This document shows, piece by piece, positions 20,334-30,845 of a DNA stretch of 49,721 nt. Both the position numbers and the translations under genes were made by a program. This DNA is from Oscillospiraceae bacterium (lineage in GTDB: Bacteria; Bacillota_A; Clostridia; Oscillospirales; Oscillospiraceae): contig SVLP01000018.1 of assembly GCA_015067895.1 (NCBI GenBank), positions 1-49,721 on the forward strand. The letters are read 5' to 3'. The notes under the pieces are model-generated. The model saw only the letters and a list, made by a program, of their open reading frames with translations, did no database searches and was not told where the DNA came from. How positions within the stretch are numbered: position 1 is the stretch's first letter; the number at the start of each line of letters is the position of its first letter.

Positions 20334-20411
20334 CTTGCCCCCTCCGTCACGATGTCTCCGGGCTTTGCCCGAAGCCATCGTGCCACCTCCCCCATAAATG
20401 GGGGAGGCAAG
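20334..20411. repeat. Composite palindromic intergenic repeat (about 78 bp)
   Basis: Outer arms CTTGCC (20334-20339) and GGCAAG (20406-20411) enclose two hairpins: CACGATG/CATCGTG with an inner CGGGC/GCCCG, and a perfect 8-bp CCTCCCCC/GGGGGAGG with loop ATAAAT. It resembles the REP/BIME-like non-coding palindromes scattered in Clostridia genomes. No second copy is seen in this window. Confidence 0.6.
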
Positions 20412-20448: not shown

Positions 20449-20460
20449 GCACACCTGGAA

Positions 20461-20547
20461 ATTATCGAAAAACAACAATTTTATTATTGACAAACGATAA
20501 TTTGCGTGCTAGTATAATGGTACAAGGATTATTGAAAAACAATAATT
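20461..20547 (+). promoter_or_regulatory. Three 20-bp operator-like repeats on a promoter
   Basis: Three near-identical, roughly palindromic 20-mers follow the consensus ATTATYGAMAAACRAYAATT at 20461-20480, 20483-20502 and 20528-20547. The first two are 22 bp apart, the third 45 bp further, close to whole helical turns. The second covers the -35 and the third lies between the -10 and the ribosome binding site. They are the obvious binding sites for the XRE regulator encoded in the operon; binding itself is inference. Confidence 0.65.
20487..20518 (+). promoter_or_regulatory. Promoter of the membrane protein/XRE/lipoprotein operon
   Basis: TTGACA (20487-20492) is followed by TAGTAT at 17 bp (20510-20515), or by TATAAT at 20 bp (20513-20518). 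The -35 sits inside an operator-like repeat, so occupation would block RNA polymerase. Confidence 0.65.
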
Positions 20548-20559
20548 GGAGGCGATGTT

Positions 20560-21492
20560 ATGAAGAAAGAAAAGCTGTGGCTGATCCTGACTGCTGTGCT
20601 GGCGGCGGTGCTGTCCTTTGTGCCCAATGTGGGAGGCGGCATTTTCGGCGCGCTGACCCTTCCCTTCACGGCGCTGGGCTGGGTGCTTCGAACCCTGTCC
20701 CTCAGCGGCGGCGCGGGAAATATCGCGGCTATCGTGCTGTACGCGCTGGTCTGCTGCATCCCCCTGATCTTCTGGCTACGGAGCAAGCGGAAGGGGGAGG
20801 ACTGGCTGCTGGTGCTGCTGTGCGGCGTGCTGGCACTGGTGCTGTACTACATGGTCAATCCGAATCTGCGGCACAGCCTGCTGCAGAACAATGTGGGCGA
20901 CACGGTCTATGTAAGCGCGGTCTGGAGCACCATCGTGACCTGGGGTGTGCTGAAGCTGGTGAGCTCCGGGGAGGAACGGCTGGAGCGGAACATCTACCGC
21001 GTTCTGCGCCTCTTTCTGCTGCTGTGCGCGGCATCCTGCCTGATGGAGGCCTTCGGCACGGGGCTTGCCGGTCTGCGGCAGAGCTTCGAGCGCAACAGCA
21101 TGGACTACGGCTTCGGCACCGTGAAGGAGCCCACCTACCTGTTTCTGATCCTGGACTATCTGGCCCTGGCTGCCGAGAAGGGGCTGACGGCTGTGGTGCT
21201 CTATAAGGGCAGTATGCTTCTGGAGGAGCTGGAAGCCGATCCCTTCAGCGAGGAATGCGTCCGTGCGGCGGGGGAGGTCAGCCGCTGGTGCCGCCAGAGC
21301 CTGGTCATCATGAGCCTGACCGTCCTGGCCCTGAACATCGGCCAGCTGCTGATGTCCGGTCTGCTGCTGAACGTCTATCTGACCGTCAATTTCCCGGTGA
21401 TGGGTCTGGCGGTGTCCTTTGCCATGCTGGCGGTGACCAAGCTCCTCGTCCGGGGCAAGGAGCTGAAGGACGAGAGCGACCTCTTCATCTGA
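20560..21492 (+). CDS. Polytopic membrane protein, unknown function
   Basis: 310 residues with about seven to eight hydrophobic segments (for example near 5-22, 28-45, 55-73, 80-98, 112-134, 146-166, 190-215 and two close together from about 245 to 305) separated by short loops. No transporter, peptidase or kinase motif was recognised. First gene of an operon with a tiny XRE regulator (11-bp gap) and two lipoproteins. The pairing of a multi-TM protein with a YozG-type regulator is reminiscent of the DUF2975/YozG pairs in Bacillota, but this protein is about twice the length of DUF2975. The ATG at 20560 has GGAGG upstream. Function unknown. Confidence 0.85.
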   Translation: MKKEKLWLILTAVLAAVLSFVPNVGGGIFGALTLPFTALGWVLRTLSLSGGAGNIAAIVLYALVCCIPLIFWLRSKRKGEDWLLVLLCGVLALVLYYMVNPNLRHSLLQNNVGDTVYVSAVWSTIVTWGVLKLVSSGEERLERNIYRVLRLFLLLCAASCLMEAFGTGLAGLRQSFERNSMDYGFGTVKEPTYLFLILDYLALAAEKGLTAVVLYKGSMLLEELEADPFSEECVRAAGEVSRWCRQSLVIMSLTVLALNIGQLLMSGLLLNVYLTVNFPVMGLAVSFAMLAVTKLLVRGKELKDESDLFI

Positions 21493-21503
21493 GGGGGTGC
21501 GGT

Positions 21504-21731
21504 ATGGGCATCGAATCGCATCTGGACGAAGTCCTGCGCAGCCGGAACATGACCTCCAAGGAGCTGTGCAAGAAGGTCGGCATCACCGAGGCCAACCTTT
21601 CGATCCTTAGAAGCGGCAAGGCCAAGGGCATCCGCTTCCACACCATCAACCGCATCTGCTATTATCTGCAATGCGATGTGGGCGACATCCTGAAATTCAA
21701 CGGACAGCTGGACGAGGAGGAAGCGGAATGA
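21504..21731 (+). CDS. YozG-like XRE-family transcriptional regulator
   Basis: 75 residues that are almost entirely one Cro/CI helix-turn-helix: LDEVLRSRNMTSKELCKKVG, then ITEANLSILRSGKAKGI as recognition helix and INRICYYLQCDVGDIL as closing helices. This matches the YozG-type mini-regulators. Likely autorepressor of the operon through the repeats at 20461-20547. The start ATG at 21504 has GGGGG upstream and the stop overlaps the next gene by ATGA. Confidence 0.88.
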   Translation: MGIESHLDEVLRSRNMTSKELCKKVGITEANLSILRSGKAKGIRFHTINRICYYLQCDVGDILKFNGQLDEEEAE

Positions 21732-22591
21732 AAAAACTATTTGCAATTGTTTTGAGCGTGCTGATGCTGGCAGGCTGTACGCTGGCAAAGCCGGGCGCGA
21801 GCGGACAGGATCAGCTGACGGGCTTCTTCCTGACCGTCTCCCGGAAGGAGGGCGACACCATCGTGGACTACTGGGACGCGGAGGCCGCGGGGATGGACTT
21901 CCTCAGCGACCACTACATGGCGGGACAGAAGCTCTACGCCGAGAAGCGCGAGGGAGACCCGCTGGAATATGTGTTCCCGGAGGGCTGCGGCCTGTACGCC
22001 TTCAGCTTTGACGCCCTGGACGGAAGCGGCGAGCCCCTGTACCGATCCAGCGATTCCTCGCCGGAGATCGACACCCGTGTGGAGTACCATGTGGGCTCCA
22101 CCACCGCCTGCCGGATCAACGCCACCATCTACGGCGAAAAGGGCTCCAATGTTGTCATCGCCATGAATCCGGTTTATCAGACTCCGGACGGGGAGCTCTA
22201 CGCCCTGAGTGCCGAGCCGGTCAGTGTGGAGGTCGGCTCCATGGAGGGCTTCAAGCTGACCCAGAGCCAGGAGGGCTCCGACGGCGAGGGCTGTGCCCTG
22301 GAGCTGACCGTCGAGCATGTGGTGCTGCCGGAAACCTACATCATCATCGAAATGAACGAGGAAAACCAGCCCCTGCGCCAGTCCGAGTATGCCCCCGAGG
22401 CCATGCCGGAAGTCTACACCCCCGGTGCGGACGCGGCCTATCTCATTCTGGAGGCTCGGGACGGGGAGGATACCACCCGCACCGTCTACAGTCCCGGCGA
22501 TGAGGTGGCGGAGATGGACACCTATTATCCCGGCGAGTACGGCCTGTGCATCAAGGGCTACACCCGCATCGAATGGGAGGGAGTAAAATGA
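21728..22591 (+). CDS. Putative lipoprotein, paralogue of the next gene
   Basis: 287 residues. Signal peptide with lipobox LAGC (C17), so probably anchored to the outer face of the membrane. The rest has no recognised domain. It shares with its neighbour a NPVY-x-T-x-DG motif, a Y-x-P-x-x-MPE motif and a conserved C-terminal TRT-x-Y-x-PG segment, so the two arose by duplication. Translationally coupled on both sides by ATGA overlaps. Function unknown; context suggests it works with the membrane protein at 20560. Confidence 0.85.
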   Translation: MKKLFAIVLSVLMLAGCTLAKPGASGQDQLTGFFLTVSRKEGDTIVDYWDAEAAGMDFLSDHYMAGQKLYAEKREGDPLEYVFPEGCGLYAFSFDALDGSGEPLYRSSDSSPEIDTRVEYHVGSTTACRINATIYGEKGSNVVIAMNPVYQTPDGELYALSAEPVSVEVGSMEGFKLTQSQEGSDGEGCALELTVEHVVLPETYIIIEMNEENQPLRQSEYAPEAMPEVYTPGADAAYLILEARDGEDTTRTVYSPGDEVAEMDTYYPGEYGLCIKGYTRIEWEGVK

Positions 22592-23469
22592 AAAAGCTGA
22601 TCGCGCTGCTGCTGGCGGTCTGTCTGATGACCGGCTGCCAGCTTGCCAGCGAAGAGAAAAACGAAGACCGGATCCAGGATAAGCTGGTGGGCATCTTCGT
22701 CACCTTTGACCATCTGGAGCTGGAATTCGACATGGAGGGCTATCTCAACGACAACGCCCACGCCATCGCCGATGGGGACGAGATCCTTATCGAACCCGGC
22801 GAGGGGATGGAATATGAGGAGCGTCTCTGGGCCGAAATCGGAGAAAACGGATGGGAATTCCCCGGCTATGAGGGCATCCTCATGGGCCAGATGTGGGAGG
22901 ACGACCACTGGGTGGGCTTCTCCACCGAGGGCTTCTGCGAGCACAAGACCCATGTGACCCGCACGGATGTCCTGGACAGCATCGACGAGGAGGGCACCAT
23001 TTACGTCCCCTTCGGCACCGAGGTCATGCTCTGCACCAATCCCGTCTACATGACCGCCGACGGCAGCTACTACGCCCTTCGGGGCGACAGCTTCCACAGC
23101 ACCGTCGATTACGGCCCCATGAGCCAGAGCATCAGCGACGAGATGACATGGACGATCGATGGGGAGGAGTTCGCCTACTCCGCCAAATTCACCGCCGTCG
23201 TCCAGGGCGTGAAGCTCAGTGACAGGGTGGTGCTGGTGCAGATGTCCGCCGACCACACGGAGCTGGCGCGGGAGGAATACCTCCCCGGAGAAATGCCCGA
23301 GACCATCACCCCCGCAGCGGGCACGGCCTACATCATCGCCGAGGAATACGCGGGCGATGAAGTCACCCGAACCCTTTACCAGCCCGGCGGAGACCCCATC
23401 AAGGTTTTCTGTCAGGGAGAACAGGTCTATTGCCTGCCCCGATTTACCGAAATAATGTGGCCCGAATAA
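22588..23469 (+). CDS. Putative lipoprotein, paralogue of the preceding gene
   Basis: 293 residues. Lipobox MTGC (C17) after a short signal peptide. The segments TNPVYMTADGSYYALRGD, YLPGEMPETITP and TRTLYQPGGDP match corresponding segments of the upstream lipoprotein, while the N-terminal halves have diverged. Last gene of the operon, followed by a strong terminator. No known domain recognised. Confidence 0.85.
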   Translation: MKKLIALLLAVCLMTGCQLASEEKNEDRIQDKLVGIFVTFDHLELEFDMEGYLNDNAHAIADGDEILIEPGEGMEYEERLWAEIGENGWEFPGYEGILMGQMWEDDHWVGFSTEGFCEHKTHVTRTDVLDSIDEEGTIYVPFGTEVMLCTNPVYMTADGSYYALRGDSFHSTVDYGPMSQSISDEMTWTIDGEEFAYSAKFTAVVQGVKLSDRVVLVQMSADHTELAREEYLPGEMPETITPAAGTAYIIAEEYAGDEVTRTLYQPGGDPIKVFCQGEQVYCLPRFTEIMWPE

Positions 23470-23472
23470 AAC

Positions 23473-23510
23473 AACTGCCCGCCGTGGGATATCCCACAGC
23501 GGGCAGTTTT
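23473..23510. terminator. Bidirectional terminator between the lipoprotein operon and argS
   Basis: Stem AACTGCCCGC/GCGGGCAGTT encloses a smaller GTGGG/CCCAC hairpin and ends in T4 on the plus strand; T-rich sequence also follows on the minus strand (complement of AAAACA at 23468-23473). It can serve both convergent units. Confidence 0.8.
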
Positions 23511-23514
23511 CAAT

Positions 23515-23549
23515 CATTCTGCATTATGCATTCAGCATTCTGCATTTAC
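23515..23549. repeat. Five tandem heptamers (CATTNNG) abutting the argS stop
   Basis: CATTCTG, CATTATG, CATTCAG, CATTCTG and CATTTAC follow each other without gaps and end at the base before the argS stop codon. Purpose unknown; likely slippage-prone. Confidence 0.6.
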
Positions 23550-30704: not shown

Positions 30705-30720
30705 AAATCGTAATGCGGAA

Positions 30721-30827
30721 ATCTTCTTCCATCCAGACTCTACTGTCGGCCCAAGAAATGCACTTGGTCAGCCTTTCGGCTCGCGGGCTATACCGCCGGT
30801 CGGGAATCACACCCTGCCCTGAAGATT
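30721..30827 (-). ncRNA. FMN riboswitch (RFN element)
   Basis: The minus strand contains the RFN landmarks in order: ATCTTCAGGGCAGGGTG, TTCCCGACCGGCGGT, AGCCCGCGAGC, a variable hairpin, then GCCGACAGTAGAGTCTGGAT and GAAGAAGAT closing the P1 helix. It senses FMN and represses riboflavin uptake through the downstream terminator. Confidence 0.97.
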
Positions 30828-30845
30828 CTCTGTTCACTTGTATAC

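What the first reader, a model, noticed from the sequence alone, without database searches (positions are those of the whole stretch)
20461..23469. Uncharacterised operon: multi-TM protein, mini-XRE regulator and two lipoproteins under a three-operator array
Three 20-mers of consensus ATTATYGAMAAACRAYAATT sit at 22-bp and 45-bp distances on the promoter, one over the -35 and one in the leader, close to helical phasing. The operon encodes a 75-residue XRE protein that is the natural ligand. The remaining products are a 7-8 TM protein and two exported lipoproteins with no known domain. All four genes overlap or nearly touch. It looks like a self-limiting envelope system, perhaps a sensor, a peptide- or antibiotic-resistance unit, or a signalling device.
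Basis: partly seen in the sequence, partly recalled or inferred. Interest (0 to 1): 0.7.

Follow-up and report, generated by a model that had tools for sequence, protein, structure and literature searches.

The report
Self-regulated membrane and lipoprotein operon
This small operon makes a DNA-binding switch, a membrane protein and surface lipoproteins; the same gene set and the same DNA switch-sites recur together in many related bacteria, and what it senses or does is not known.

Summary
In detail: three 20-mers at 20461, 20483 and 20528, none expected by chance, before a four-gene operon, 20560-23469. It is a conserved module. Searching by lipoprotein gave 30 loci; searching by membrane protein, without asking for a lipoprotein, gave 54 more, 52 complete enough to judge. 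All 82 judgeable loci carry membrane protein, small XRE protein and lipoprotein. The operator (AATTATTGACAAACRATAATT and variants) lies within 260 bp of the membrane gene in 82 of 83 scored loci, with the -35 box TTGACA inside it in 73. The same dyad precedes DUF2975 operons with a related XRE gene in the same genomes. The membrane protein is a remote, enlarged DUF2975 relative; the two lipoproteins are homologous. I file it as a new variant of the little-studied HTH_26/DUF2975 kind, with lipoproteins where the two sister operons checked have DUF4153. Most likely the XRE protein represses its own operon, as the related VanUG does (PMC4405338), the membrane protein tunes it, and the lipoproteins are the outer sensing or responding part. 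Autorepression is well supported; the rest is inferred.

The parts
20460..20480 (+). Operator O1, upstream dyad AATTATCGAAAAACAACAATT
   Evidence: no counterpart at the threshold used among the 82 scored relatives
20482..20502 (+). Operator O2, dyad containing the -35 box; conserved in relatives
20487..20492 (+). -35 box TTGACA inside O2
20510..20515 (+). Probable -10 box TAGTAT, 17-bp spacer (alternative TATAAT 20513-20518, 20-bp spacer)
20527..20547 (+). Operator O3, dyad in the leader directly before the ribosome site
20548..20552 (+). Ribosome-binding site GGAGG
   Evidence: sequence
20560..21492 (+). Membrane protein (MP), 310 aa, about 8 TM helices; C-terminal third DUF2975-like, tail GKELKDESDLFI probably cytoplasmic
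21504..21731 (+). 75-aa XRE (HTH_26) DNA-binding protein, putative autorepressor
21728..22591 (+). Lipoprotein A, 287 aa, beta-rich model (mean pLDDT 88)
22588..23469 (+). Lipoprotein B, 293 aa, homologue of lipoprotein A
23473..23508 (-). Terminator-like hairpin (16 pairs) between this operon and the converging gene; the scan lists it on the - strand only, so its use by this operon is a guess

Best explanation
A self-repressed three-part transmembrane regulatory operon. The 75-aa HTH_26 XRE protein, presumably as a dimer, binds AATTATYG-N5-CRATAATT dyads: O2 hides the -35 box, O3 lies 45 bp downstream near the start of the transcript, and O1 lies 22 bp upstream, so the operon shuts itself off (well supported by anatomy and precedent, not shown). 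The DUF2975-like membrane protein, first gene of the operon, probably binds the XRE protein through its conserved cytoplasmic parts, the loop around 215-240 and the tail LKDDNDLFI, and so sets how much repressor is free (inferred). The exported lipoproteins sit on the outer face and give the system its input or its output, most likely as partners of the membrane protein's outer loops (inferred, weakest step). The signal is unknown; an envelope or surface condition is my guess.
For: Linkage both ways: 30 of 30 lipoprotein-found loci and 52 of 52 judgeable MP-found loci have MP, XRE and lipoprotein. An operator within 260 bp of MP in 82 of 83 scored loci; in the other (L106) an exact pair precedes a lipoprotein gene placed before MP. 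1 of 1660 shuffled upstream regions reached the same threshold. TTGACA lies inside the operator in 73 of 83. A -10-like hexamer with at least 4 of 6 matches fits at 16-17 bp in 47 of 51 rows (ties were broken towards 17). Site pairs are 40-45 bp apart in 50 of 62 intervals and 31-34 bp in 7. In 30 genomes the exact dyad has 64 sites, the reversed pattern 16; by my reading lie at this operon, 16 before DUF2975 genes, 8 were not fetched. The stretch ANLSxLxxGKAKxxRF, which should hold the recognition helix, is shared by both regulator types, as a shared operator requires. XRE is 73% identical (median of 27 loci) against 33-34% for MP and lipoproteins. Precedent: VanUG protects -70 to -20 over the -35 on two adjacent imperfect palindromes, to +10 at higher concentration, and represses its own promoter (PMC4405338 abstract and passages). 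The positive-inside count puts both DUF2975-like conserved pieces in the cytoplasm.
Confidence: 0.5

Rival explanations
1. Homeostatic repressor only: XRE caps expression, MP and lipoproteins form an envelope device (for example a transporter-like or protective complex), and no signal passes from MP to XRE.
For: Most operator sites found lie on the promoters of such modules. MP and lipoproteins diverge to a similar degree (33-34% identity) while XRE and operator are far more conserved. Nothing here shows MP-XRE contact.
Against: 11 of 11 scored DUF2975 loci, and 16 of 16 fetched from operator sites (one locus in both sets), have a relative of the XRE gene next to DUF2975, and the two third genes I checked there differ from the window's (DUF4153); this suggests that membrane protein and regulator act as a pair. 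The conserved acidic tail probably lies on the XRE side of the membrane.
Confidence: 0.25
2. LytTR-system-like activator: free XRE activates its own operon and MP is the inhibitor, as in HdrRM and BrsRM.
For: Same general build: small DNA-binding protein plus polytopic membrane protein without enzyme domain, autoregulated operon (PMC6193735 passages).
Against: LytTR repeats are direct repeats just upstream of the -35 (PMC6193735 abstract passage); here inverted repeats cover a consensus -35 box (73 of 83 loci), which suits repression. The related VanUG represses.
Confidence: 0.12
3. The leader repeat O3 works as an RNA hairpin next to the ribosome site rather than as a DNA operator.
For: O3 is an inverted repeat in the transcript, directly before GGAGG.
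Against: In 15 loci the left arm reads TTAAATAAAAC, so by eye (not folded) the hairpin is largely lost, while the right half-site and its place are kept; O2, on the promoter, has the same dyad.
Confidence: 0.05
4. Toxin-immunity, bacteriocin-immunity or phage-defence unit.
For: Compact operon with a small XRE regulator, as in many such units (general knowledge).
Against: PADLOC gives no hit for MP or lipoproteins and only weak HTH hits for XRE; Pfam and NCBIfam show no toxin domain above a curated cut-off in these proteins. Mobility was not tested beyond a fruitless viral-contig scan for MP.
Confidence: 0.08

Closest known systems
HTH_26 (YozG-like, name recalled) + DUF2975 + DUF4153 operons
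   Same: Related regulator with the same conserved stretch, the same dyad in front, order membrane protein then regulator, C-terminal tail ENDLTI comparable to ESDLFI.
   Different: DUF2975 proteins seen here are about 150-190 aa, the window's is 310 aa and below the DUF2975 cut-off; the third gene in the two operons checked is DUF4153, here lipoproteins. The regulators form two types with different ends (LKFDGxLE against LEYxED).
VanUG of the vanG locus
   Same: XRE family; its NCBIfam model is the best match of the XRE protein, below cut-off; autorepressor binding two adjacent imperfect palindromes over the -35 (PMC4405338).
   Different: VanUG sits with a two-component system, not with a DUF2975-like protein or lipoproteins; the window's XRE scores 29 against the model's cut-off of 150 bits.
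LytTR Regulatory Systems (HdrRM, BrsRM)
   Same: Small DNA-binding protein plus polytopic membrane protein in one autoregulated operon (PMC6193735 passages).
   Different: Different DNA-binding domain, different membrane families (DUF3021/DUF2154), direct repeats upstream of the -35, regulator gene first, activation rather than repression.
BcrR of Enterococcus faecalis
   Same: DNA-binding regulator tied to a 4-helix membrane part that senses bacitracin (as described in a PMC13384398 passage).
   Different: One fused protein; here regulator and membrane protein are separate genes and lipoproteins are added.

Membership tests
HTH_26 (PF13443) | Profile match above Pfam cut-off | tested here: met
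   78.3 bits against cut-off 22, residues 6-66
DUF2975 (PF11188) | Profile match above Pfam cut-off | tested here: not met
   17.9 bits against 27, residues 211-309
DUF2975 (PF11188) | Remote homology of the C-terminal third with an ENDLTI-type tail | tested here: inconclusive
   hhalign probability 89%, E 2.3e-6, 106 columns ending in the tail
HTH_26/DUF2975 operon kind | DUF2975-type membrane gene next to an HTH_26 gene under the AATTATYG-N5-CRATAATT-type dyad | tested here: inconclusive
   dyad and HTH_26 neighbour met; the membrane gene is only remotely DUF2975-like
HTH_26/DUF2975 operon kind | DUF4153 gene as third gene (seen in 2 of 2 operons checked) | tested here: not met
   lipoproteins instead
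VanU | NCBIfam NF000090 equivalog cut-off | tested here: not met
   29 bits against 150
VanU | Binds palindromes over the -35 of its own promoter and represses | not testable with these tools
   matching anatomy only
LytTR Regulatory System | LytTR DNA-binding domain | tested here: not met
   regulator is HTH_26
LytTR Regulatory System | DUF3021 or DUF2154 membrane protein | tested here: not met
   only weak DUF2975 and DUF2663 matches up to E 1
LytTR Regulatory System | Direct repeats just upstream of the -35 | tested here: not met
   inverted repeats covering the -35
LytTR Regulatory System | Membrane protein inhibits the regulator | not testable with these tools
   needs genetics
Known defence systems (PADLOC) | Model match of membrane protein or lipoproteins | tested here: not met
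   none up to E 0.1; XRE only weak HTH matches

The most novel reading that the evidence does not exclude
A previously undescribed kind of bacterial transmembrane signalling system, built without kinase, protease or sigma factor: a beta-sandwich lipoprotein outside, a DUF2975-type transducer in the membrane and a tiny XRE autorepressor inside that is captured or released by the transducer. It would belong to a wide HTH_26/DUF2975 class using one shared operator code, so that sister modules in one cell can cross-regulate.
Probability: 0.35. Interest if true: 0.75.

Novelty: new variant of a known kind. Interest (0 to 1): 0.55.

Why it matters
DUF2975 proteins are frequent (over the cut-off in 10 of 39 genomes of one order and in 5 of 14 control genomes, Bacillus subtilis among them) and in the loci I scored they stand next to a relative of this XRE protein, yet my searches found no functional study of them. 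The conserved operator, the fixed pairing and the lipoprotein variant make questions testable: what the membrane protein holds, and what is sensed. If the membrane protein titrates the regulator, it would add a class beside one-component, two-component and LytTR systems.

Tried and rejected
Tried without result: whole genome of the window (not held); MP alone against genome contigs (118 pattern matches, no relative); MP in viral contigs (43 pattern matches, no relative); Foldseek of MP (no match at E 0.001 or better) and of lipoprotein A (only weak complement, Fn3, Ig and macroglobulin-type matches); solved structures by sequence for lipoprotein and MP (nothing credible); literature for DUF2975, YozG/YoaS, HTH_26, DUF4153, a word combination, the operator letters and the Pfam accessions (listings only: none that by title treats these proteins' function). 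Considered and rejected: phage-defence or toxin unit; O3 as RNA hairpin; the MP-XRE merged frame in L023 as a natural fusion proving contact (it lacks the first part of the HTH domain and is a single MAG). I could not tell apart lipoprotein as sensor and lipoprotein as effector.
Full report
OBSERVATION. Three dyads of the type AATTATYG-N5-CRATAATT lie at 20460-20547, 22 and 45 bp apart; none of 100 shuffles of the window gives one within 3 mismatches. The middle one contains TTGACA, followed by TAGTAT at 17 bp or TATAAT at 20 bp. The third lies directly before the ribosome site of the first gene. Four genes follow on the + strand: membrane protein (MP), XRE, lipoprotein A and lipoprotein B, with an 11-bp gap and two ATGA overlaps. 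A terminator-like hairpin at 23473-23508 is listed on the - strand only. The operon lies between sbcD/sbcC-like genes and an opposite-strand gene whose product reads as arginyl-tRNA synthetase (my reading, not searched). The organism is unknown to me.

PARTS. XRE is HTH_26 (78 bits), best matched in NCBIfam by VanU but far below that cut-off, and matches solved regulators only weakly (best 3tyr, E 7e-5). MP matches DUF2975 below cut-off in its last third. A profile of 28 MPs against 9 DUF2975 proteins gives probability 89%, E 2e-6, ending in the shared acidic tail. The model of MP (mean pLDDT 80.5) has nine long helices; hydropathy and the positive-inside count fit 8 TM helices with one outer interfacial helix, both termini inside, and the DUF2975-like loop and tail inside (the topology is my inference). 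Lipoproteins A and B are homologues (30% identity). At E 0.001 or better lipoprotein A has 97 other relatives, B 222 (120 rows listed) and MP 136 (120 listed; only the 7999 best word-sharing candidates were scored). Lipoprotein A is modelled as beta-rich (mean pLDDT 88) with no convincing solved match.

CONSERVED MODULE. A lipoprotein profile found 30 loci in genome contigs (34 stretches matched its single pattern), from records titled Oscillospiraceae, Lachnospiraceae, Dorea, Defluviitaleaceae and other Clostridia. All 30 have MP, XRE and lipoprotein in this order; MP is cut by the contig end in L005 and L010, and in L023 MP and XRE are merged in one frame. Because that sample was chosen by lipoprotein, I searched by MP alone at E 1e-8: 8 of 394 genomes of one order with profile A2, 10 of 394 of apparently the same order with A3, 18 of 392 of another order, 31 of 350 of one family, 10 of 348 of the phylum. 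These samples overlap. After removing genomes already seen, 54 new loci remain (23, 31); one further genome, G971 with two MP matches, was given no locus and is not counted. Two (L119, L131) are cut inside MP; the other 52 of 52 have XRE and lipoprotein beside MP. L106 has an extra lipoprotein gene before MP, L101 and L013 a second one after the first; L067 has a stop inside MP and L124 a broken lipoprotein gene. A3 includes MPs from lipoprotein-found loci, but a hit did not require a lipoprotein. Loci are related by descent and are not independent events; many records are MAGs.

OPERATOR. Of 85 loci with the window, 83 had enough upstream sequence (L005 and L010 did not); 82 of 83 have a site above threshold within 260 bp of MP, against 1 of 1660 mononucleotide-shuffled upstream regions. 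The exception, L106, has an exact pair before its first gene, a lipoprotein. L129 lacks the exact dyad but passes the threshold. The weight matrix was built from exact dyads of many of these loci, so scores are not independent of them. TTGACA is inside a site in 73 of 83. Sixty-one loci have two or more sites; of 62 intervals 50 are 40-45 bp, 7 are 31-34, the others 22, 36, 55, 67 and 67. Only the window has three sites. A -10-like hexamer with 4 or more of 6 matches fits at 16-17 bp from the -35 in 47 of 51 rows (rows include two secondary sites; ties favoured 17; L029 has only 2 of 6). The preferred spacings are near three and four helical turns; I did not correct this for kinship.

GENOME-WIDE. 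In the 30 genomes the exact dyad TTATYG-N5-CRATAA has 64 sites, the reversed pattern 16. By my reading, 40 sites lie at this operon. Sixteen more that I fetched all lie before a DUF2975 gene with a relative of XRE next to it (16 of 16). Five of these DUF2975 genes and three of the regulators were run through Pfam and confirmed as DUF2975 and HTH_26; the rest depend on my own profile, of which 9 of the 16 are members, and on phmmer. In the two operons whose third gene I ran, it is DUF4153. Eight sites were not fetched. In an independent DUF2975 search of 39 genomes, 11 loci were scored: XRE relative beside DUF2975 in 11 of 11, exact dyad in 6 of 11, one of which (L078) is the same locus as L031; a twelfth (L086) was not scored on its own. 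In 6 of the 16 fetched loci the best-scoring site is a second, TTGACA-bearing one about 20 bp downstream of the first, like O1 and O2 of the window. The two regulator types share ANLSxLxxGKAKxxRF and differ in their C-terminal ends (50 and 19 sequences caught by a typed peptide pattern, others missed). XRE is 73% identical to the window's (median of 27 loci; L005, L010 and L023 left out), MP 33%, lipoproteins 34%.

MECHANISM. Sites over the -35 and near the transcript start suit repression. VanUG, a related XRE protein, protects -70 to -20 on two adjacent imperfect palindromes, to +10 at higher concentration, and represses its own operon (PMC4405338: abstract and passages). LytTR systems offer the model of a membrane protein holding a regulator, but with direct repeats upstream of the -35 and activation (PMC6193735: abstract and passages); the sequestration claim for HdrRM I saw only as cited in PMC13384398 (abstract and passages). 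I therefore propose autorepression (likelihood about 0.85), modulation by MP (about 0.55) and lipoproteins as the outer input (about 0.4, against output).

NOVELTY. DUF2975 occurs in 2 papers of the library, YozG or YoaS in 19, none on their function by title, DUF4153/DUF4173 in 3, PF11188 in none and the operator letters only in two unrelated sheep papers; all seen as listings. I found no description of the lipoprotein variant in these searches; subscription papers and preprints were not searched. I file it as a new variant of the HTH_26/DUF2975 operon kind, not as DUF2975, VanU or LytTR.

Noticed in passing
L023:6923-7933 (also L047): MP and XRE merged into one 336-aa frame: MP lacks its end and the HTH domain lacks its first part. 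Deletion, assembly error or real fusion cannot be told from one MAG.
   Followed up: partly
L031-L046: The same dyad precedes DUF2975 operons in the same genomes, so two regulators in one cell may share operators.
   Followed up: partly
L106:315-3595: Variant gene order: operator pair, lipoprotein, MP, XRE, lipoprotein.
   Followed up: no
L046:3814-4173 and L045:4259-4699: Small genes with lipoprotein-like starts downstream of DUF2975 genes; my lipoprotein profile did not match them.
   Followed up: no
L067 and L124: Broken copies: an in-frame stop in MP (L067) and a split lipoprotein gene (L124).
   Followed up: no
window 30717-30830 (-): FMN riboswitch, 113.6 bits.
   Followed up: no
window 20386-20407: GC-rich near-palindrome CCTCCCCCATAAATGGGGGAGG after the sbcC-like gene; one place in the window.
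   Followed up: no
window 23522-23546: Tandem-like CATTATGCATTCAGCATTCTGCATT element between the two converging genes; one place in the window.
   Followed up: no
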